Source: a bacterium (lineage in GTDB: Bacteria; Actinomycetota; Acidimicrobiia; Spongiisociales; ZC4RG35). Taken from it: a stretch of DNA of 64,000 bases. The notes beneath the pieces were generated by a model. It saw nothing but the letters and a program-made list of their open reading frames with translations, was not told where the DNA came from and made no database searches. The DNA lies in contig JAHEJW010000010.1 of NCBI GenBank assembly GCA_024638655.1, positions 1 to 64,000 of the forward strand, read 5' to 3'. Numbering within the stretch: the stretch's first letter is position 1; every line of letters starts with the position of its first letter. The position numbers and the translations under genes are program-made. Positions 20,580 to 47,660 of this stretch are shown piece after piece.

Positions 20580-21857
20580 TCAGAATTGCTCTTCCTCGGT
20601 GCTTCCGCTCAGAGCCAGCGTCGAAGAAGATCCTCCGCTGACCGCCTGGCTGACCAGGTCGAAGTATCCGGCCCCGACCTCTCTCTGGTGCCGGGTGGCC
20701 GAGTAACCCTTGTCTTCCATTGAAAACTCGTGGTTCTGCAATTCGACGTACGCCGACATCCCGCGCTCGCGGTAGTCGAGCGCGAGCTCGAACATCGATG
20801 CGTTGAGGGCATGGAACCCGGCGAGGGTGATGAACTGATACCGGTACCCCATAGTCCCGAGCTCTTTTTGGAATCGGGCGATCGTCGATGTGTCGAGATG
20901 TGCGCTCCAGTTGAAGGACGGCGAACAGTTGTAGGCGAGCATCTTCCCCGGGTATTCCGCGTGAATCGCGTCGGCAAAGGCCCTTGCCTCCTCGAGGTCC
21001 GGCTTCGCCGTCTCACACCAGATGAGATCGCAGTGGGGCGCATAGGCCAGACCGCGAGCTATCGCCGACTCCAATCCGCCCGATACCTGGTGAAAGCCCT
21101 CGGCGGTCCGGTCACCGACGATGAAGCGCCGATCTCTCTCGTCGACGTCGGAAGTGAGGAGTGTTGCCGAGTTGGCGTCGGTGCGGGCCACGATGATCGT
21201 CGGGACCCCCATGACGTCAGCAGCGAGCCGCGCAGATTGCAGCGTCCGGACGTGCTGGCTGGTCGGCACCAAGACCTTTCCCCCCATATGGCCGCACTTC
21301 TTCTCGGCCGCCAGTTGGTCCTCGAAGTGCACACCTGCAGCGCCGGCGGCTATGAAGCTCTTGGTCAGCTCGAACACATTGAGCGCGCCACCAAACCCGG
21401 CCTCGCCGTCGGCGACGATCGGGACGAACCAATCGATTTCGGTGTCACCTTCAGCCCAGTGGATCTGGTCGGCTCGCCGGAGTGCGTTGTTGATGCGATC
21501 GACCAACGCTGGTGCGGAGTTGGACGGGTACAGAGATTGGTCGGGATAGACCTCGCCGGCCAGGTTCCCGTCGCCTGCCACCTGCCAGCCGGACAGATAT
21601 ATCGACTTCAACCCTGCCTTGACCATTTGGACCGCCTGGCCGCCACTCAGCGCACCCAACGCGTTGAGGTAATCCTCGGTGTTCAGGAGATCCCAGAGCT
21701 TGGCCGCCATTCGGTACGCCAGAGTGTGCTGCTCACGAATGCTCCCACGCAGCCTGATGACCTCCTCGGGCCCATAGTCCCTCGTGATCCCATCCCATCT
21801 CGGGTTGTTCTGCCAGTCCTCGGCCAGGCGGGCTGCTTCGTTTCGATAGTTGTCCAT
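20580..21857 (-). CDS. aceA: isocitrate lyase
   Basis: 425 residues. Splits isocitrate to glyoxylate and succinate, first step of the glyoxylate shunt. The signature [11 protein letters not shown] contains the catalytic Cys; also [25 protein letters not shown] and [12 protein letters not shown]. Length is that of the short actinobacterial/enterobacterial AceA. It lies 10 bases downstream of malate synthase, and the pair is transcribed from the intergenic region shared with ramB. A hairpin (GGGCC, 4 bases, GGCCC, 20508-20521) follows about 60 bases after the stop. Confidence 0.98.
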
Positions 21858-21867
21858 GGTCCTCTCC

Positions 21868-23427
21868 CTAGTTGATCAACTCGTAGGCGGGCAAAGTCAG
21901 GAAGTCAACGAAGTCGTCGGACAGCGACACCTCCTCGAACACCTTTCGTGCCGCTTCGAGCCGCTTGCTGAAAGGGTGACCGGCCGCCTCCAACTCAGCG
22001 ACGGTCTCACCTGCGATCGATCGGACCAGATGCTCGGTGACTTGCGAGCCCTCGTCGGTGGTGACACCGTGGTGAACCCACTGCCAGATCTGGGATCTAG
22101 AGATCTCGGCCGTTGCGACGTCCTCCATCAGGTTGTTGATCCCCGCCGCACCGACTCCCGAGAGCCACGAAGCGAGATACTGGATGCCGACCGACACGTT
22201 GGTGCGGACACCCGTCATGGTGACCTCCCCCGGGAAGTCGAGATCGAGCAAGCCTTCATTGCTGACATCGACATCGTCTCGTCGAAGATCTACTTGATTC
22301 GGTCTATCACCCAGCACCGCGTTGAACTCGTCCATGGCAACAGACACCAGGTCGGGATGAGCCACCCAGGTGCCATCACACCCGGCGCCCGCCTCGCGAG
22401 CCTTGTCTGCCGACACGGCGGCAAAGGCCGCCTCGGTGACCTCGGGATCTCGCCGGTTTGGGATGAAGGCGGCCATTCCCCCTATGGCATGTGCGCCGCG
22501 TCGATGACAGGTCTGGATCATCAACTCCGTGTAGGCGTGCATGAACGGGACCGTCATGGTGACCTGAGACCGATCGGGAAGGACCATCTCGGGATCGTGA
22601 CGGAACTTCTTGATGACCGAGAATATGTAGTCCCAGCGTCCTGCATTCAAACCAGCCGCGTGATCGCGTAGCTCGTAGAGGATCTCGTTCATCTCGTAGG
22701 CCGCCAGGACGTTCTCGATGAGAACTGTTGCCTTGATGGTTCCAAGCGGCATCCCCAGACGGTCCTGCGCCCAGATGAAGACGTCGTTCCAGAGGCGCGC
22801 CTCGAGGTGTGACTCGAGCTTGGCGAGATAGAAATACGGTGCGGTTCCGTTCTCAAGCGCAGCCCGACCACCATGAAACATGTAGAGGCCGAAGTCGAAC
22901 AGCGAGGCTGACATGGAGCGGCCATCGACCTGGAAGTGTTTCTCCTCCAGATGCCACCCCCTCGGCCTGACGAGGAGTGTGGCGGTCTCCGGGTTCAGCT
23001 CGTAGGTCTTTGCTTCGGTCTCGAGTCGCAGCGTTCGCTCATGAGCCTCTACCAGGTTGGCCTGACCCTCCAACAGGTTCTGCCAGGTGGGAGAGGTGGC
23101 GTCCTCGAAATCGGCCATGAAGACCTTCGCTCCCGAGTTGAGCGCATTGATCATCATCTTCCGGTCTACCGGCCCGGTTATCTCGACCCTACGATCGGTC
23201 AGATCAGCCGGAACCGGGGCGATCTCCCACGCCGACTCCCTGATCTCTCGGGTGGAGTCGAGGAATTCGGGCCGTCTACCGGCGCCGAGCTCTTCCTGGC
23301 GAAGTTGTCGCGCCGCCAGTATCTGCCCCCGCCGCCATCGGAACTCGTTCTCCAGGTCGTCGAGAAAGGCCACTGCATCCGGCGTGAGCACCCTTTTTTC
23401 ATATTCGCTGGTGCGGAACTGATTCAT
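21868..23427 (-). CDS. aceB: malate synthase A
   Basis: 519 residues, A-type TIM barrel enzyme. Condenses acetyl-CoA with glyoxylate to malate, completing the shunt with aceA. Family stretches are visible: [67 protein letters not shown] (parts), and the catalytic-loop Asp region. ATG at 23427. Actinobacteria such as mycobacteria usually carry the longer GlcB form, so an AceB-type enzyme in an aceBA operon is a small point of interest. Confidence 0.97.
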
Positions 23428-23510: not shown

Positions 23511-24959
23511 ATGACCGAAGCTCAGACCCTCGATCCGCTCATTCTGGGACGTCGGGTGCGGCACTACCGAAATGCCGTCAACCTGACTCTCGACGAACTC
23601 GGGGAGAAGGTCGGCAAGCCCGCCCCGTATTTGTCCCTGCTGGAGAACGGCAAGAAGGAGCCGCGGGTGGCGCTGATGATGGACATCGCCTCCACCCTCG
23701 GAGTCGATGTCGGCGAGCTCTTGGACCCTTCACCTCCAACCAGGCGCGATGAACTCGAAATCGCCCTTCTCAAGGCCCAAGAGACCTCCCTCTTCGACTC
23801 GCTCGACCTTCCCCCGATCAGGCCCAGCGCCCGCATGAGCAATGAAACACTCGCCCATCTGGTCGGTCTCCATCGTGCCGTGAAGGAGAGATCGAGTCTC
23901 GAGTCGGCCGGCTTCGAGGAACTGGCCCGGGCGACCGGAGCTGTGTCGGAATACCTGGCCTCCAAGGACGGCTATCTCGATGACATCGAAGTGGAGGCGG
24001 CTTCGGCCTTGAGGGCCTCGGGCTATCCCGGAGAGGGACCGTTTTCCTCCCGGAATCTCCTCGACCTGACCAGCCACGCCGGCTTCGACCTTCGCCCTAT
24101 CGACGATATGCCTGCCTTCGCCCGCTCCATCATCGACCTGGACAACAACCGGATCTACATCGCACAGCGTGATGAGCTACGCACCAGGCAAGCCCGCAAG
24201 GCCGTACTGCAAACCGTTGCCGGTTTCCTGCTCGGGCATGAAACGGAGCCCGACCTCGATACCTTCTTGCGACAGCGCATGGAGACCGCCTATTTCGCTA
24301 CAGGGGTCCTGGTTCCACAGGACGTCGTCGTGCCGCGTCTCATGGTGGCAAAGGAGAACCACGACATCGACGTCGAGGATGTCAAGGAGTTGTTCTACGT
24401 GTCCTACGAGATGGCGGCCTGGAGGACGGTCAATCTCCTTACCCGACACTTCGGCATCGACAGCCACCTCCTGGTGAGTGACGAGACGGGCACGATCATC
24501 AAGGGATACTCCAACGACGAGGTCCCGATACCAAGGAACGAGCACGGTGCCATGGAGACCCAGCGGCTGTGTCGTCACTGGGGGGCTCGGATCACTTTCC
24601 AGTCGCCCGACAAATACGGAACGCACCATCAATACACCGACACCCCCAACGGCACCTTCTTTTGCACGACCCACGTCGAGGCCGGGCGCGAACCGGCGCA
24701 TGGAATAACGATTGGGGTGCGTTTCGAGGATGCGCGGTGGATGCGGGGCCGGGAAACGGGCAACCGAATGACATCGAGCTGTCCGGACCCCGCCTGCTGC
24801 CGCCAGCCTTCGCCCGAGCTGACCAGCAAGTGGGGAGGAAAGGTCCAGGTCTCGGCCAGATCCCAGGGACGGATTCTGGGCATGCTGGCACCCGACCCTT
24901 ACCCCGAGCTGGACATGCCTCAGGTTCTCGCGGTGGTAGACGGCCACGCAAGCGACTGA
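23511..24959 (+). CDS. ramB: RamB-type regulator of acetate / glyoxylate metabolism
   Basis: 482 residues. N-terminal XRE helix-turn-helix (about 12-68, GRRVRHYRNAVNLTLDELGEKV ... YLSLLENGKK in part), a middle IrrE/DUF955-like segment where the HExxH is not kept, and a C-terminal short-chain fatty acyl regulator domain with several paired cysteines (SCPDPACCRQP). RamB of Corynebacterium and Rv0465c of M. tuberculosis have this layout and control aceA, aceB and acetate genes. Here it is divergent from aceBA, which supports the same job. ATG with TGGAG upstream. Confidence 0.9.
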   Translation: MTEAQTLDPLILGRRVRHYRNAVNLTLDELGEKVGKPAPYLSLLENGKKEPRVALMMDIASTLGVDVGELLDPSPPTRRDELEIALLKAQETSLFDSLDLPPIRPSARMSNETLAHLVGLHRAVKERSSLESAGFEELARATGAVSEYLASKDGYLDDIEVEAASALRASGYPGEGPFSSRNLLDLTSHAGFDLRPIDDMPAFARSIIDLDNNRIYIAQRDELRTRQARKAVLQTVAGFLLGHETEPDLDTFLRQRMETAYFATGVLVPQDVVVPRLMVAKENHDIDVEDVKELFYVSYEMAAWRTVNLLTRHFGIDSHLLVSDETGTIIKGYSNDEVPIPRNEHGAMETQRLCRHWGARITFQSPDKYGTHHQYTDTPNGTFFCTTHVEAGREPAHGITIGVRFEDARWMRGRETGNRMTSSCPDPACCRQPSPELTSKWGGKVQVSARSQGRILGMLAPDPYPELDMPQVLAVVDGHASD

Positions 24960-25469: not shown

Positions 25470-26948
25470 CTACGAAGACCCGGTGACGAAGTCTCTGAGG
25501 GCAGCTGCCAGCTTGTCCAACGACTCAAGGTGCACATACATCATGTGGCCCGCCTCGTAGTACTCCATGCGGACATTCGGGCGCACCTCGGGGTCGAGTC
25601 CCATATGGGAAAAGGTGTACTCGGTGGCGAAATGTGGTGTCGCCAGGTCGTAATAGCCGTTGGCGACGAGCACCCTGGTTCCTCGCGACCTCGATAGCAG
25701 CTCGCGCATCTGCTCGGACGTGTCGACGTAGCGATTCTTGAAATCCTCGTAGTCCCAACGACGATTCACGTCGAGAGAGAGGATCTCGTATACGTCGTCT
25801 GACTGGAACCCGATCTCACGACGCAAGTAGTCGTTGAGGGCCGCGCTGGCGACGGCTGTTGTGGCGTCCGAACTCGGATCTGCCTCGATGTTCTCACCCC
25901 TTCGCACACGGTCGATGCCGGTGTAACGGGAGTCGAGACGCCCGACCGTGCGGTGTTCCTCGCGCAGCAGCTCCTTGCAGAATCTGAGGATGTGGATCCG
26001 AAGGTCGTAGTGATCGATGTAATCGGGGTCGAGTCCTGTGTAGTCGCTGAGCCGCCCTGCGATCTTCGTGCGCGTTTTCTGATCGATCAGATCCCCCTGA
26101 GCGAGGGCCAGCCAATAGTCGGAGAGTGCGAACGCCTCGACTTCGTCGAGGAACTCTCGCAGCGCCATCGACTGATACTTCTTCGCCAGCCTGCCGTGGT
26201 ATCGGGCGGTTGCCGCGTAGGTTGGGAGGTAGAGGGCGAACGGGAGGTCGTTGCCAGGGTGAACCATCATCGTGCCGATGTCGATACCTGAGGTCTGGTA
26301 GTTGAGGATCGCCGAGATGAGCATCACGCCGTTGAACTCCACTCCCCTATCGACAAAAAGCTTGCGAGCGATGGCCGCGGCTCGAAGAGTGCCATAGCTC
26401 TCCCCGGCGAGATACTTGGGCGAGAGCCAGCGGTCGTTGCGGTTCAGATAGCGGACGATGAACTCGCTGAAAGCCTCGACATCCCGTTTGAAGTGGTGAA
26501 ACTCTTCTTCCTTCTCCTTGGGGTGGACCCGGCTGAAACCGGTCCCGATGGCGTCGACGCAAACCACGTCGCAAACGTCGAGGATCGAGCTCTGGTTGTC
26601 CACGAGTTTCCCCTGCATCCCGAGTTTGAAGCCCTCATCGTCAAAGACCATTCGTTTGGGGCCAAAGAGCCCGAGATGGAGCCAAACCGTGGATGAGCCG
26701 GGTCCACCGTTGAAACAGAAGAGAACCGGGCGCGTCGCCGGGTCGGCGTCGTCCTGGGTGTAGGAAACGTAGAAGAACGAGGCCTTGGATTCTTCAATCT
26801 CGAATACCTGGGTGGCGGCTCTTGCCGTGTACGAGATCTCCGTGTCTCCGAAGGTGCCGGTGAGTTGGCGAGAAGACTCCTTTTCCTCGATCTCGGGGAG
26901 CTTCCCTTCGTCCTGGTTCTCGTCTGGTTTCGGTTTGTCTTCTGTCAT
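25470..26948 (-). CDS. serine carboxypeptidase-like S10 family protein
   Basis: 492 residues, alpha/beta hydrolase of peptidase family S10. The triad is visible: Ser184 in AGESYGT, Asp in NGYYDLATP and His in EAGHMMY; the oxyanion-hole motif is CFNGGPGSS. There is no signal peptide: the N-terminus is acidic and Glu/Pro-rich, so the enzyme appears cytoplasmic, unlike eukaryotic vacuolar members. The substrate is unknown. It follows the AhpD-like gene by 11 bases and so may be read from the 2-oxoacid dehydrogenase operon. Confidence 0.92.
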   Translation of the reverse strand: MTEDKPKPDENQDEGKLPEIEEKESSRQLTGTFGDTEISYTARAATQVFEIEESKASFFYVSYTQDDADPATRPVLFCFNGGPGSSTVWLHLGLFGPKRMVFDDEGFKLGMQGKLVDNQSSILDVCDVVCVDAIGTGFSRVHPKEKEEEFHHFKRDVEAFSEFIVRYLNRNDRWLSPKYLAGESYGTLRAAAIARKLFVDRGVEFNGVMLISAILNYQTSGIDIGTMMVHPGNDLPFALYLPTYAATARYHGRLAKKYQSMALREFLDEVEAFALSDYWLALAQGDLIDQKTRTKIAGRLSDYTGLDPDYIDHYDLRIHILRFCKELLREEHRTVGRLDSRYTGIDRVRRGENIEADPSSDATTAVASAALNDYLRREIGFQSDDVYEILSLDVNRRWDYEDFKNRYVDTSEQMRELLSRSRGTRVLVANGYYDLATPHFATEYTFSHMGLDPEVRPNVRMEYYEAGHMMYVHLESLDKLAAALRDFVTGSS

Positions 26949-26959
26949 CTCACCGAAGG

Positions 26960-27526
26960 CTAAACAGTCTTCGGCCGGCCATCGGCGTCGAGCCAGTCCT
27001 CGTGTGCGATCCCGAGACCCTCGGCGATTCTGTTGATGTAGTTGAAATATGCAATCACCTGGGTGGCACTCGAGATTGCTTCGTCGTCGAGCCCATGGCT
27101 GCGCAATGCCTCGACGTCTGTTGGGCCAAGAGCCGCCGGATCTTCCGTCAATCTCTCGGCGTAGTCGAGTAGCGCGCTGGTCCTTTCATCCACCCCTGCC
27201 GACCGCCAGTCCTCGGCAAACCGGTCAACCAGGTCCTGATCGTCGACCTCGTCACGGAGGTCGTGCAGATGCGCCCGGATTCAGTAGTGGCAGTCGTTGT
27301 GACGCGAGGTGACCACCGCGATCATCTCGCGCTGCGCACGGCTCAGCGGCGAGGGGCCGAACATGATCGACTGGTAGAGCCGCATCGAGTCGCGCATGAC
27401 TTCGGGCAACTGGCACTGAATCGAGACAATGTTCCATATGCGGCCGGCGCGCCGGATCGCCTTGTCGTACTCACGCCTGGCCAGACCTGTCGTCTCCTCG
27501 TAATCGTGGACGTGAATGTGGGGCAT
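26960..27526 (-). CDS. AhpD-like peroxidase-related protein with in-frame TGA, candidate selenoprotein
   Basis: Two ORF halves (27281-27526 and the part down to 26960) are in one frame, split only by TGA at 27281-27283. Read through, the product has 188 residues and matches carboxymuconolactone decarboxylase/AhpD-like peroxidase-related proteins along its whole length, ending in ATQVIAYFNYINRIAEGLG. The TGA (position 82) replaces the second Cys of CxxCxxxH: C79-H-Y-U82-I-R-A-H86, and a Glu lies 12 residues before C79, as in mycobacterial AhpD. There the second Cys is the peroxidatic one. A 7-bp hairpin follows 17 bases after TGA. Five bases separate it from the E2 gene. The alternatives are a sequencing error or a young pseudogene. 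Confidence 0.82.
27244..27263 (-). promoter_or_regulatory. candidate bacterial SECIS hairpin
   Basis: Minus strand: CGACCTC, loop CGTGAC, GAGGTCG, a perfect 7-bp stem. The stem begins 17 bases and the apical loop 24 bases after the TGA, inside the range for SelB-read elements, and the loop has G at its second position. An outer CTG/CAG pair of three bases could extend it across an internal loop. The stem lies in coding sequence, as expected. Confidence 0.6.
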
Positions 27527-27531
27527 GGCGT

Positions 27532-28827
27532 CTAGGCGAGGAAGAGCGCCGGCTCCTCCAGGTTCTCCATGACCATCGCCATGAAACGGCGCCCTTGAGC
27601 ACCATCTACGACCCGATGGTCGTAAGACAAGGAGAGAGGCATCACGGATGCGATGACGAGATCACCGTCGTAGACGATCGCCTTGTCTCGTGCCCTGCCC
27701 ACGGACAGTATGCCAACGGTCCCGTACGGAACGATCGGAGTGCCGTGGCCTCCGCCGACCGCTCCGATGTTGGAGATTGTGAATGACTGCCCACCCAGCT
27801 CGTCGGGGGCGAGTCTTCGCTCCTTGCCACCATCGCCGAGGCGACGGACCTCCGAAGCCAGTTCGAGAACGCTTTTTGAGCCGGCATCCCAGATGACCGC
27901 CACCAGTAGGCCGTCGGGTGTGTCGACCGCGATACCGATGTCCTGGGAGCCATGGAGCACCAGATCATCACCCTCCAAGGTCGCATTGAACTCAGGGAAA
28001 GCCTCCAGGGCGGGAACCAAAGCTCTGATGACAAGGGCTTCGATGGGGATCTTCTCACCATGACGTTCGCCCAGGGCCTCCCTGACCTCCAGCAAGCGGG
28101 TCGCGTCGATGTCGTCGAAAGTGGTGACATGCGGTATCTCTGCCCAGCTCTTCGACATGTTCGCTGCGATCGTGCGACGCAACCGCGACATCGTGGAGCG
28201 TTGATCGACTCGCCGTTCCGACTTCGCGTCGGATGGGAATCCCGCCGGGCGTTGTTCGGCCGCGGGAGCGGCGGGCTCCCCAACTCGTGCCGCGATCACG
28301 GTTTCAACGTCTTCTCTGGTGATTCGCCCGTGTGGGCCCGAGCCCTCAACGGTCGAGAGGTCGACGTCGTTGTCCCGGGCCAGCTTGCGGACGATGGGCA
28401 GGGCCTTGATCCCCTGATCCGGCTCAGCCGCCGGACTGGTGGACGGAGGCTCGATCGTCTCGGCCTCCTCGCTGAGTGTCCCCACGATGGGAGATGGAAA
28501 ACCCGATGAAGGCGCGGGTCTCTCCTGCGACGGGGCAAAGACACGCTCAGCTGGTTCTTCGGGCTCGGGTTGGGATTCGAGCTGCTCACCCGTCTCGCCG
28601 ATCACAACGATTATCTCGCCGACCTCGATGACATCGCCCTCGGCTCCCCCGAGCTCCAAGACGACCCCGGCATAAGGGGAGGGAATCTCTACGACCGCCT
28701 TGTCCGTCTCGACCTCGACGATCGGTTGATCGGCATCGACATGATCGCCCTCGGCAACGAGCCAGCGAACGATCTCGGCCTCGGTCAGCCCCTCTCCGAT
28801 GTCGGGCAGCTTGAACTCCCGTGCCAC
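27532..28827 (-). CDS. 2-oxoacid dehydrogenase E2 (dihydrolipoamide acyltransferase)
   Basis: 431 residues in three parts: one lipoyl domain (1-80, lipoylated K43 in VETDKAVVE), a Pro/Glu-rich linker, a peripheral subunit-binding domain (about 143-178, ALPIVRKLARDNDVDL ... GRITREDV) and the catalytic acyltransferase domain with SYDHRVVDG near the end. It passes the acyl group from E1 to CoA. GTG start with AGGGA upstream. With E1alpha and E1beta it forms a pyruvate- or branched-chain-type complex. The acyl specificity is not decided by sequence alone. No E3 gene lies here. Its lipoyl arm could also reduce the AhpD-like product of the next gene. Confidence 0.95.
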   Translation of the reverse strand: MAREFKLPDIGEGLTEAEIVRWLVAEGDHVDADQPIVEVETDKAVVEIPSPYAGVVLELGGAEGDVIEVGEIIVVIGETGEQLESQPEPEEPAERVFAPSQERPAPSSGFPSPIVGTLSEEAETIEPPSTSPAAEPDQGIKALPIVRKLARDNDVDLSTVEGSGPHGRITREDVETVIAARVGEPAAPAAEQRPAGFPSDAKSERRVDQRSTMSRLRRTIAANMSKSWAEIPHVTTFDDIDATRLLEVREALGERHGEKIPIEALVIRALVPALEAFPEFNATLEGDDLVLHGSQDIGIAVDTPDGLLVAVIWDAGSKSVLELASEVRRLGDGGKERRLAPDELGGQSFTISNIGAVGGGHGTPIVPYGTVGILSVGRARDKAIVYDGDLVIASVMPLSLSYDHRVVDGAQGRRFMAMVMENLEEPALFLA

Positions 28828-28831
28828 CTGT

Positions 28832-29809
28832 CTATCCCTCCAACGTCTTCTCTGCGGCGTTCACGATGCGGTCCACCGCTGGAAGGTAGTGAGTTTCGGA
28901 CCGCTTGAGCGGAAAGACGGTATCCCAGCCAGTCACCCGCACAATGGGAGACAGCAAGGAGTAGAGGCAGCGTTCCTGGATCGAGGCAGCGATTTCTCCA
29001 CCAAAGCCGCCGGTCAGAGGAGCTTCGTGGATGATCACTGCGCGTCCGGTCTTCTCCACACTGTCGGCCAGTCCACCCCGGTCCAGAGGGGAGAGAGTGC
29101 GGACATCGAGGACCTCTACCGAGACACCCTCTGACTCGAGCCTCACGGCCGCTTGGCGGGTCTCCTTCATCATCGCTCCCCAGCTGATGAGTGTGATGTC
29201 CTCGCCCTCGCGTTCGACCCTCACCGGCCCAATGTCCACCGTGTAATAGATGTCGGGGATGTCTTCCTTGACGGCTCGATACAGGCGTATCGGCTCGAGA
29301 AAGACAACCGGATCTGGGTCTTCGATGGCCGCCAGCAACAAGCCTCGTGCGTCTCTGGGAGTAGAGGGCACCACGACCTTGATGCCGGGGATGTGGGCAT
29401 AGATCGACTCGGTTGACTCCGAATGGTGCTCGGCTGCGCCGATACCGCCGCCGTACGGCACCCTGATCACCATCGGCGCGGCGAAGCGATGGTTGGATCT
29501 GTTCCGGATCCGGGCGACATGATTGATGACCTGGTCGTATGCCGGATAGGAGAAGCCCATGAATTGGATCTCGGCGACCGGCCTCATACCGGCAACCGCC
29601 ATGCCAAAAGCAGCTCCGACGATTCCCGACTCGGCTACCGGTGTGTCGAAGACACGCTCGCCTCCGTGGGTGTCGAGCAAGCCATCGGTTATGCGAAAGA
29701 CCCCACCAGTCCTTCCGATGTCCTCTCCGAGCAGGACGACGCGGCTGTCGGACCCAAGGGCGGTGTCCAAAGCCCCGTTCAGGGCCTGAGCCAGATTGAC
29801 CTCACCCAT
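28832..29809 (-). CDS. 2-oxoacid dehydrogenase E1 beta subunit
   Basis: 325 residues. Transketolase pyrimidine-binding fold: GEDIGRTGGVFRITDGL, TPVAESGIVGAAFGMA, EIQFMGFSYPAYDQVINHVA and the C-terminal transketolase domain. Works with the alpha subunit as an alpha2beta2 TPP enzyme. ATG overlapping the alpha-subunit stop by 8 bases (ATGGGTGA), so the two are translated together in equal amounts. Two or so bases separate it from E2. Confidence 0.95.
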   Translation of the reverse strand: MGEVNLAQALNGALDTALGSDSRVVLLGEDIGRTGGVFRITDGLLDTHGGERVFDTPVAESGIVGAAFGMAVAGMRPVAEIQFMGFSYPAYDQVINHVARIRNRSNHRFAAPMVIRVPYGGGIGAAEHHSESTESIYAHIPGIKVVVPSTPRDARGLLLAAIEDPDPVVFLEPIRLYRAVKEDIPDIYYTVDIGPVRVEREGEDITLISWGAMMKETRQAAVRLESEGVSVEVLDVRTLSPLDRGGLADSVEKTGRAVIIHEAPLTGGFGGEIAASIQERCLYSLLSPIVRVTGWDTVFPLKRSETHYLPAVDRIVNAAEKTLEG

Positions 29810-30935
29810 CGGAGGCGATCTTCTTCTGTTCCTGCAAAGACGGAGTCGGGGTGGAGAACATGCGGTCGAACAGGTCTTCGGGCTCCGGTTGTGCCAGGTT
29901 TTCGGCCCACTCCACCGCCTCCTCGATCTTCGCAGATGCAGCCTTCTCCAACTCCTCTTGCCACTCGGAGGTCCAACCCCGCGCCTTCTCCAGCAGCTTC
30001 CGAATGCGCGTCAGGGGATCTTTGGATCTCCAGTCCTCGCCCTCGTCTTCGTCGCGGTACCGGCCCGGGTCATCCGAGGTCGTGTGGGGGCCGAGGCGAT
30101 AGGTCACGGCCTCGATGAGGCTCGGCCCTTCACCTCGCCTGGCCCGGTCGACGGCCTCCCTGACGACGGCGAGCACGGCCGCTACGTCGTTGCCGTCGAC
30201 TCGCGCCGCCGGCATGCCATAGGCCTCGGCTTTGACCGCGATCGTCTCTGAGCGGGTCTGTTCATGGACCGGATAGGAGATTGCGAATCCGTTGTTCTGA
30301 CAGAAGAAGACGGTCGGAGTCTCGTATACGGCGGCGAAGTTCATCGCCTCGTGAAAGTCGCCCTCGGACGTGGCTCCGTCCCCGAACGAGGTGAGGGCGA
30401 CTGAGTCGCTTCCTTTGAGCTTCTCGGCCCAGGCGAGCCCGACCGCGTGGATCATGTGCCCACCAACGGTTATCGACGGTGGCAGGATCCTGACGCTCTC
30501 GGGCACCTCTCCTCCACGCTCGTCTCCTGTCCGGCCGAGTATCAGCAACCGCCACGGGTATCCCGCCCTCCAATTGAGTGCCGCATCGCGATAGGTGGCA
30601 GCCAGCCAGTCCTGCGGGCGGAGGGCTGCTGCCGCGCCGATCTGTGCCGCCTCCTGGCCTTCGAAAGGGGCGTAGGTGGCAAGTCTGCCCTGACGCTGCA
30701 TGGCCATCGACTTATGATCGAAGACACGGGCCTCCACCATGTCGGCGTAGAGGGCCCTCATCTCCTCGAGGGTCACCGGAAGCCGATCGAGTACCGAGCC
30801 GTCAGGCTCTATCAGCTGGAACATGTCCTTGGGCGCATCGGGAGAAGTCTCGCGAACCGCGTCGTTGGTTGTCTGGGAGGCCATGGGTATCAAGGCCTCG
30901 AGGCCTCTGCCCAGCCCTGGCTTGCGTGAGCTCAA
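29802..30935 (-). CDS. 2-oxoacid dehydrogenase E1 alpha subunit with ParB-like N-terminal leader
   Basis: The core, from about residue 38, is a normal E1alpha: TPP motif FGDGATSEGDFHEAMNFA to CQNN, the phosphorylation-loop-like YRLGPHTTSDDPGRYR, and GGHMIHAVG. What is odd is the start. TTG at 30935, with AGGG 7 bases upstream and further GGGG before it, encodes MSSRKPGLGRGLEALIP before the first ATG (30884). This 17-residue leader is the N-terminal signature of chromosome-partition ParB/Spo0J, where it activates the ParA ATPase. The ATG has only a weak site. Either start gives an active subunit, so the leader would be an added targeting tail. Confidence 0.93.
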   Translation of the reverse strand: MSSRKPGLGRGLEALIPMASQTTNDAVRETSPDAPKDMFQLIEPDGSVLDRLPVTLEEMRALYADMVEARVFDHKSMAMQRQGRLATYAPFEGQEAAQIGAAAALRPQDWLAATYRDAALNWRAGYPWRLLILGRTGDERGGEVPESVRILPPSITVGGHMIHAVGLAWAEKLKGSDSVALTSFGDGATSEGDFHEAMNFAAVYETPTVFFCQNNGFAISYPVHEQTRSETIAVKAEAYGMPAARVDGNDVAAVLAVVREAVDRARRGEGPSLIEAVTYRLGPHTTSDDPGRYRDEDEGEDWRSKDPLTRIRKLLEKARGWTSEWQEELEKAASAKIEEAVEWAENLAQPEPEDLFDRMFSTPTPSLQEQKKIASDG

Positions 30936-45989: not shown

Positions 45990-46340
45990 ATGCGGAGCGT
46001 GATAGGAAATCGCACCGTCGGGCTGGGACTGGCAGCAATGATCACCATTGCCGCCACACTCTCCGTCACGGCGACATTCAAGTCTTCGGCGCCGGGCCTG
46101 GGTCTAGAGCCGGTGGGTGGGGCCGAGAACCTGATCCAGTTGATACAGGGTCAGGAACACATCGTCTGGTCTGCGTTGACCGGGACGGTCACGAGCTATG
46201 AGGCGGTCGGCTGGCCGTCGTCGGCAGGTGACGTCGAGCTCGGCGGGGCACTGGTGATCGAGCGGCCGGCGGACACGTCCGCCGGGATCATCGACTTTGG
46301 GGAGAGGCCGATGTCGCTCGAATTTCACCTCAACCGCTGA
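45990..46340 (+). CDS. small exported or anchored protein of unknown function
   Basis: 116 residues. An N-terminal hydrophobic segment (about 10-29, GLGLAAMITIAATLSVTATF) looks like a signal peptide or anchor. The rest is a small beta-rich domain with a GALVIERPADTSAG strand. No family is recognised. The stop is followed by the strong hairpin at 46352-46385. Confidence 0.5.
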   Translation: MRSVIGNRTVGLGLAAMITIAATLSVTATFKSSAPGLGLEPVGGAENLIQLIQGQEHIVWSALTGTVTSYEAVGWPSSAGDVELGGALVIERPADTSAGIIDFGERPMSLEFHLNR

Positions 46341-46351
46341 CCAGACTGTTC

Positions 46352-46385
46352 TGTGTGGGCTCGCGCGGGGTCGCGAGCCCGCACA
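46352..46385. terminator. bidirectional terminator
   Basis: A 14-bp stem (upper part GGGCTCGCG/CGCGAGCCC perfect, one U-G pair below) with a 6-base loop CGGGGT, between the convergent ends of the small exported protein and the M16 peptidase. It is strong enough to act on both strands although no T-tract follows. Confidence 0.75.
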
Positions 46386-46403
46386 GGACGCCGTGAACAG
46401 ATC

Positions 46404-47660
46404 TCAAAGCTGGATGTAGCCCTCCAGGTCCCCGGCGTCGAATGGTCCGACGGCTCCGATGACCCGGGTGTCCGCGCCATAGAGGTTGGCAGCAACATCC
46501 TGGACCGCCTGGAGATCGACGGCTTCCAGCTTCTCGAGCCTCTCATCCACCGACAGATGGGGCATGCCGGCCAACTCGTCTCGGCCAAGTCGTACCATTC
46601 GACTGTTGGCGTCTTCCAGCGCCAGGGCGAGGCCGCCACGCATCGATCCCTTGGCACGCTCTAGCTCTTCGGAAGATATTCCCTCCTCGACGACCTTGGC
46701 CAACTCCTCTCGGATCACGTTGAGAGCGGTCTCGGTCTGACTCGGTGTGGTGCCCACATATACGCCCCAGGCACCGTTGTCGGCATAGGCGAGTTTGAAT
46801 GCATAGATCGAGTAGGCGAGACCCCGCTCCTCTCTCACCTCACGAAACAGACGGGAAGACATCCCGGAACCCATGACATGATTCAGGACTTCGAAGGCCC
46901 ATCGCCGATCGTCTTCCCTGCGCAGCCCGGGCCCCCCAAGGACTATGTGGGCTTGCTCGGTTTCACGACGGCGAACGTTGACCCTCGGCGTCGTCTCGAC
47001 CGGGGAAAGATCATGATCCACCGCTGCCCCGGACCAATCACCGAATCTGTCGGCAATCATCTCCACCAGATCTGCATGCTCGACCGACCCGGCGGCCGCC
47101 ACCACCATCGAGCCGGCTCCGTACCGACGTCCCCAGTATCCGACGATGTCTTCTCTGCTCATCTCGCGAATCGACTCCCTGGTGCCCAACACCGGAGCCT
47201 CCAGGTCATGGTCGGCAAAGACTGCGCTCGTGAAACACTCGAAGGTCACGTCGTTCGGGTCGTCCTCGTACATGTTGATCTCTTCGATGACGACCTGACT
47301 CTCCGACTGGATTTCGTTCGTTCGGAAAGCAGGCCTCTGGATGATCTCCGAAAGGACGTCGAGCCCGGTGCCCAGGTCTTGGTCGAGCAGCCGGGCCCAA
47401 AAGCAGGTGTATTCCTTGGAGGTGAACGCATTCGACTCGGCACCGATCGAGTCAAATGTCTCGGAGACATCTCTAGCCGACAGCTTCTCCGATCCCTTGA
47501 AGAGGAGGTGTTCGAGGAAGTGTGAGACGCCTGCCTCATCGGGCATCTCATCTCGGGTGCCGGTGTCAATCCAGCAGCCGAGTGCAATCGATCGAAGTGA
47601 GGGCATCGCCTCGGAGATCACGCGGAGGCCATTGGGGAGGGTCGTGAGGTCGTAGTGCAC
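46404..47660 (-). CDS. M16 family zinc peptidase (pitrilysin/PqqL-type)
   Basis: 418 residues from GTG 47660, which puts TTLPNGLRV a few residues in, as in relatives; ATG 47726 would add 22 residues. The inverted zinc motif is HFLEHLLFKG (HxxEH) and the third ligand Glu lies downstream in IEEINMYEDDPND. The C-terminal inactive half has GGPGLRREDDRRWA and GLAYSIYAFK. Only one full M16 protein is encoded, so it probably forms a homodimer or pairs with a partner elsewhere. The downstream end is near the terminator. Confidence 0.93.
   Translation of the reverse strand: MHYDLTTLPNGLRVISEAMPSLRSIALGCWIDTGTRDEMPDEAGVSHFLEHLLFKGSEKLSARDVSETFDSIGAESNAFTSKEYTCFWARLLDQDLGTGLDVLSEIIQRPAFRTNEIQSESQVVIEEINMYEDDPNDVTFECFTSAVFADHDLEAPVLGTRESIREMSREDIVGYWGRRYGAGSMVVAAAGSVEHADLVEMIADRFGDWSGAAVDHDLSPVETTPRVNVRRRETEQAHIVLGGPGLRREDDRRWAFEVLNHVMGSGMSSRLFREVREERGLAYSIYAFKLAYADNGAWGVYVGTTPSQTETALNVIREELAKVVEEGISSEELERAKGSMRGGLALALEDANSRMVRLGRDELAGMPHLSVDERLEKLEAVDLQAVQDVAANLYGADTRVIGAVGPFDAGDLEGYIQL

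What the first reader, a model, noticed from the sequence alone, without database searches (positions are those of the whole stretch)
26960..27526. AhpD-like gene with TGA at the catalytic cysteine: candidate selenoprotein
Seen: one reading frame from 27526 to 26960 is broken only by TGA at 27281-27283, and the protein on both sides reads as a single AhpD/carboxymuconolactone-type sequence. The TGA replaces the second Cys of C-x-x-C-x-x-x-H (C79, U82, H86), and a Glu lies 12 residues before C79. Known: in M. tuberculosis AhpD the second Cys, with Glu118 and His137, is the peroxidatic residue, so selenocysteine would sit at the nucleophile. CxxU AhpD-like selenoproteins are recorded from environmental data. 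Inference: this is a functional selenoprotein in an actinobacterium, not a pseudogene, because no other damage is visible.
Basis: partly seen in the sequence, partly recalled or inferred. Interest (0 to 1): 0.92.

Follow-up and report, generated by a model that had tools for sequence, protein, structure and literature searches.

The report
Selenocysteine AhpD-like redox enzyme gene
The gene's internal stop codon is almost certainly read as selenocysteine, which makes it a further member of an already listed bacterial selenoprotein family; the less expected part is that it sits directly behind a lipoyl-bearing dehydrogenase gene that could supply its electrons.

Summary
One frame (27526→26960, minus strand) is broken only by TGA at 27281-27283 (codon 82) and reads as one AhpD-like protein, C79-H-Y-U82-x3-H86 with E67. 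The selenocysteine reading is strongly supported. The same genome carries tRNA-Sec, selA, selB and a selD that itself has an in-frame TGA. All 80 best homologues in genome contigs, spread over many phyla, have TGA at this codon. A hairpin with a loop G follows the TGA and shows compensatory changes. Purifying selection acts on both sides, and TGA ends 20 of 28 large window genes, so it is not generally reassigned. The family is known: AhpD-like, TIGR01926, CxxU, is in the 2026 selenoproteome table (PMC13188914) and in earlier marine surveys. So this is a new member of a known kind. What I did not find described is the context: in the window's taxonomic family the gene closes a PDH-type E1α-E1β-E2 operon, directly behind the lipoyl E2, the class of protein that reduces AhpD in mycobacteria and corynebacteria. 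Function as a lipoyl-E2/Lpd-reduced Sec peroxidase or disulfide reductase is inferred, not shown.

The parts
26960..27526 (-). AhpD-like selenoprotein gene (188 residues, Sec at codon 82)
27281..27283 (-). in-frame TGA read as selenocysteine (U82 of C79-H-Y-U82)
27244..27263 (-). SECIS-like hairpin: 7-bp stem, 6-nt loop with G at loop position 2 (27255), starting 18 nt after the TGA
27532..28827 (-). E2 of a 2-oxoacid (PDH-type) dehydrogenase complex: lipoyl, E3-binding and acyltransferase domains; its stop codon lies 5 nt before the selenoprotein ATG
28832..29809 (-). E1 beta subunit
29802..30935 (-). E1 alpha subunit (TIGR03181, 444.7 bits, above cut-off)
25470..26948 (-). serine carboxypeptidase (peptidase S10)-like protein, downstream neighbour conserved in the family

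Best explanation
The gene encodes a functional AhpD-like (TIGR01926) selenoprotein. UGA at codon 82 is decoded as Sec by tRNA-Sec and SelB with the aid of the hairpin just downstream (shown by comparative evidence, not biochemically). Inferred mechanism: Sec82, helped by His86 and Glu67, attacks a peroxide (or an oxidised peroxidase); Cys79 resolves it to a selenenylsulfide; this is reduced by the dihydrolipoyl arm of the E2 encoded immediately upstream, which Lpd and NADH recharge. It would thus tie peroxide removal to the 2-oxoacid dehydrogenase complex, as M. tuberculosis and C. glutamicum AhpD do with SucB and Lpd. The confidence given is for the selenoprotein itself; the lipoyl-E2 donor step stands at about 0.5.
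For: tRNA-Sec (72.4 bits; ARAGORN tca), SelB (588 aa), SelA and SelD in the same genome. 80/80 homologues from Actinomycetota, Chloroflexota, Acidobacteriota, Planctomycetota, Neomarinimicrobiota, Calditrichota, Gemmatimonadota and Myxococcota have TGA at this codon, although one of the two search patterns could only match TGY there. Hairpin: 100% paired in 18 orthologues; in 80 homologues a loop G in 80/80 and pair 24/37 is CG 43, UA 32, UG 4, CA 1, with 86.6% pairing against 29-55% when slid. dN well below dS on both sides. AF2 model pLDDT 95.6; close solved fold D. radiodurans AhpD 6k40, TM 0.87, 34% identity. E2 upstream of the gene in 8 family genomes, and a monophyletic E2-linked clade. 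Lpd present in the genome. C. glutamicum CgAhp, a CxxC protein with AhpD-like activity, is preferentially reduced by Lpd/SucB/NADH (PMC10460364).
Against: No protein evidence for Sec. In the window alone the hairpin is no more stable than shuffles (z -0.44), and its outer pairs are lost in many Actinomarina sequences. The E2 link is confined to one taxonomic family; most members of the Sec clade have other, non-conserved neighbours, and many genomes of the family have this E2 without the selenoprotein, so the lipoyl-donor step is only inferred. The His132 equivalent of M. tuberculosis AhpD is Tyr here.
Confidence: 0.95

Rival explanations
1. Pseudogene or sequencing error: the TGA is a nonsense mutation or a miscalled TGC/TGT.
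For: Single MAG; the reads were not available to check.
Against: TGA at the same codon in 80/80 homologues from other assemblies and purifying selection after the TGA.
Confidence: 0.01
2. TGA is reassigned to another amino acid in this lineage, so the residue is not Sec.
For: The frame is open under such a code.
Against: TGA is the stop of 20 of 28 large window genes; the Sec machinery is present; Cys stands at this place in solved homologues.
Confidence: 0.01
3. It is a selenoprotein, but the electron donor is not the E2 lipoyl domain (for instance thioredoxin or a low-molecular-weight thiol), and the operon position is incidental to one family.
For: Outside the window's family no E2 neighbour was found in the fetched flanks; the 5-nt gap may only provide translational coupling.
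Against: The E1b-E2 linkage is kept across seven genera of the family, and lipoyl E2 is the documented donor for AhpD (PMC8945050, PMC10460364).
Confidence: 0.4
4. It is a selenoenzyme of the AhpD fold with another substrate, for example reductive dehalogenation like Bmp8.
For: Bmp8 debrominase is among the fold matches (TM 0.74).
Against: Only 18% identity to Bmp8 against 34% to D. radiodurans AhpD, and the full E-C-x-x-U-x3-H set is kept.
Confidence: 0.04

Closest known systems
AhpD-like selenoprotein, TIGR01926, CxxU (PMC13188914 table; AhpD-like families of PMC2398784 and PMC1088965)
   Same: TIGR01926 above cut-off, CxxU motif, SECIS-like hairpin downstream of the UGA
   Different: Here in a PDH-type E1-E2 operon; I found no such context in the papers searched
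D. radiodurans AhpD (6k40) and D. geothermalis 2oyo
   Same: Same fold (TM 0.86-0.87), 34% identity, motif aligned
   Different: Cys in place of Sec
M. tuberculosis AhpD (1knc) with SucB/Lpd
   Same: E-x11-C-x-x-[C/U]-x3-H arrangement; the mycobacterial enzyme is reduced by a lipoyl E2
   Different: Different subfamily (15% identity, TM about 0.6), Cys instead of Sec, His132 replaced by Tyr81
NF041238 alkylhydroperoxidase-related (seleno)protein
   Same: Related CxxU AhpD domain
   Different: Window protein scores 60.5 bits, far below its cut-off of 175

Membership tests
Bacterial selenoprotein | In-frame UGA conserved, or Cys, at a redox position in homologues | tested here: met
   80/80 homologues TGA; Cys in solved homologues
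Bacterial selenoprotein | SelA, SelB, SelD and tRNA-Sec in the genome | tested here: met
Bacterial selenoprotein | SECIS hairpin after the UGA with a loop G | tested here: met
   energy alone not significant
Bacterial selenoprotein | Selenium present in the protein | not testable with these tools
   needs 75Se labelling or mass spectrometry
AhpD-like protein TIGR01926, CxxU | TIGR01926 score above cut-off | tested here: met
   141.7 against 81.8 bits
AhpD-like protein TIGR01926, CxxU | CxxU motif | tested here: met
   C79-H-Y-U82
AhpD proper (M. tuberculosis type) | Relay Glu118, Cys130, His132, Cys133, His137 | tested here: not met
   E67, C79, U82 and H86 present; the His132 position is Tyr81 (PMC3141380)
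AhpD proper (M. tuberculosis type) | Reduction by lipoyl E2 and Lpd | not testable with these tools
   only genomic context: E2 5 nt upstream, Lpd in the genome

The most novel reading that the evidence does not exclude
In one family of Acidimicrobiia a selenocysteine AhpD has been built into the operon of a PDH-type complex, making the lipoyl E2 a dedicated electron source for a selenoenzyme: a direct, genetically fixed link between central carbon oxidation and selenium-based peroxide defence.
Probability: 0.4. Interest if true: 0.6.

Novelty: new member of a known kind. Interest (0 to 1): 0.42.

Why it matters
Gene callers would truncate or drop this gene at the UGA. Its clade had TGA at the active site in every close homologue examined, across many phyla and including marine Actinomarina, so the family looks Sec-dependent rather than an occasional Cys replacement. 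The E2 operon suggests an electron donor for a selenoprotein family for which I found no biochemical characterisation, which makes a direct assay possible.

Tried and rejected
Pseudogene and code reassignment were tested and rejected. A viral-contig scan found no relatives. A conserved partner gene was sought beside the gene in other phyla; none was evident by eye in 12 loci, but those neighbours were not run against family libraries. Presence of selA is weakly informative because 117 of 138 genomes of the order have a match. The only other window frame with a single internal TGA (45990-46664) looks spurious and was not pursued. Searches for papers on Actinomarina or Acidimicrobiia selenoproteins, and on AhpD with lipoamide and selenocysteine, returned none in the held library.

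Full report
Observation. The minus-strand frame from 27526 to 26960 is exactly as described: 188 residues, a single in-frame TGA at codon 82, and a TAG stop. The read-through protein is a TIGR01926 'peroxidase-related enzyme' (141.7 bits, cut-off 81.8) and a CMD-family protein (PF02627). The alignment runs through the TGA, with C79-H-Y-U82-x3-H86 and E67 twelve residues before C79. These four positions are invariant in 32 diverse homologues.

Is TGA selenocysteine? The window lies in a 2.87-Mb, 75-contig genome (93.3% complete). It holds a tRNA-Sec scoring 72.4 bits, also called by ARAGORN with anticodon tca, selB of 588 aa, selA immediately upstream of selB, and selD, which itself contains TGA in the motif SGUACK. 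TGA is not generally reassigned: it ends 20 of 28 large window genes.

Conservation. In 138 genomes of the same order all the close orthologues (58-74% identity) carry TGA at this codon. In the independent genome-contig collection the 80 best relatives, 44-74% identical, all carry TGA there; some of these are the same contigs as in the order search. They come from Acidimicrobiia, Candidatus Actinomarina, Chloroflexota, Acidobacteriota, Planctomycetota, Neomarinimicrobiota, Calditrichota, Gemmatimonadota and Myxococcota. The search was not biased towards TGA: one of the two patterns could only match TGY at the codon. In a sample of 396 genomes of the phylum every match above about 150 bits has a TGA, and the Cys forms score lower. 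Purifying selection acts before and after the TGA (dN 0.1-0.5, dS mostly above 0.7).

SECIS. Eighteen nucleotides after the TGA starts a 7-bp stem with a 6-nt loop carrying G at loop position 2. In 18 orthologues all 126 pair cells are standard pairs, including two C-G to U-A double changes at one pair. In 80 homologues the loop G is present in 80/80 and that pair is CG 43, UA 32, UG 4, CA 1. Pairing is 86.6% in register against 29-55% when slid. A second, more distant AhpD-like group, including the genome's own copy at C35:20538-21086, has its own hairpin with clear covariation (0/500 shuffles reach the score). The folding energy of the window's hairpin alone is not exceptional.

Structure. 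AlphaFold2 on the homologue alignment gives pLDDT 95.6. The nearest solved structures are TIGR01926-type Cys proteins: D. radiodurans AhpD 6k40 and D. geothermalis 2oyo (TM 0.86-0.87, 34% identity) and 2prr (0.87). M. tuberculosis AhpD is more distant (TM about 0.6). In D. radiodurans the mutant lacking AhpD is more sensitive to H2O2 and the CxxC cysteines matter (PMC8945050).

Context. Five nucleotides upstream lies an E2 gene with lipoyl, E3-binding and acyltransferase domains, preceded by E1 beta and E1 alpha (TIGR03181 above cut-off). In the window's taxonomic family the E2-selenoprotein order is visible in eight genomes (seven genera), often with the same S10-type peptidase downstream. 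In one of the eight (G136) about 600 bp separate the two genes. In another (G124) the gene looks frameshifted in that assembly. The E2-linked proteins form one clade (100/95). Outside this family no E2 was found beside the gene. Many genomes of the family have the E2 without the selenoprotein. In genus g18, G135 and G137, in which no selA was found (93% and 95% complete), have E2 and the peptidase but no selenoprotein, while G136 with selA has it: this looks like a gene lost along with the Sec trait, on small numbers.

Mechanism. By analogy with M. tuberculosis AhpD, whose relay is Glu118, Cys130, His132, Cys133 and His137 (PMC3141380), Sec82 should be the attacking residue, Cys79 the resolving one, and His86 and Glu67 the relay; Tyr81 stands for His132, as in PA0269. 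AhpD-type proteins take electrons from NADH through Lpd and a lipoyl E2 (PMC8945050), and C. glutamicum CgAhp prefers this route by orders of magnitude (PMC10460364). The genome has an Lpd. The E2 encoded directly upstream is therefore the most likely donor. This last step is inference.

Novelty. AhpD-like CxxU selenoproteins were reported from the Sargasso Sea (PMC1088965) and Global Ocean Sampling data (PMC2398784), and TIGR01926 CxxU is listed in a 2026 review (PMC13188914). The finding is therefore a well-supported new member of a known kind. The E1-E2 operon context was not found in the literature searched.

Noticed in passing
window 29802-30935 (-): The E1 alpha reading frame from its TTG start begins MSSRKPGLGRGLEALIP, which resembles the N-terminus of ParB proteins, before the E1 domain starts; it may be a start-site artefact or a remnant.
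   Followed up: no
L017 (G000:C35:20538-21086, +): A second AhpD-like gene in the same genome with TGA at the equivalent codon and a different, strongly covarying hairpin; its group is common across the order.
   Followed up: partly
L049 (G000:C29:51742-52665, -): selD of this genome is itself a selenoprotein gene (SGUACK motif with TGA).
   Followed up: partly
window 20580-23427 (-): Isocitrate lyase and malate synthase A lie side by side (glyoxylate shunt), next to a regulator weakly similar to RamB at 23511-24959, close to the E1-E2-selenoprotein operon.
   Followed up: partly
L143 (G135), L159 (G137), L145 (G136): Within genus g18, two genomes with no selA found lack the selenoprotein between E2 and the peptidase, while the one with selA has it; a small PspC-like frame follows E2 in G135 and G137.
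   Followed up: partly
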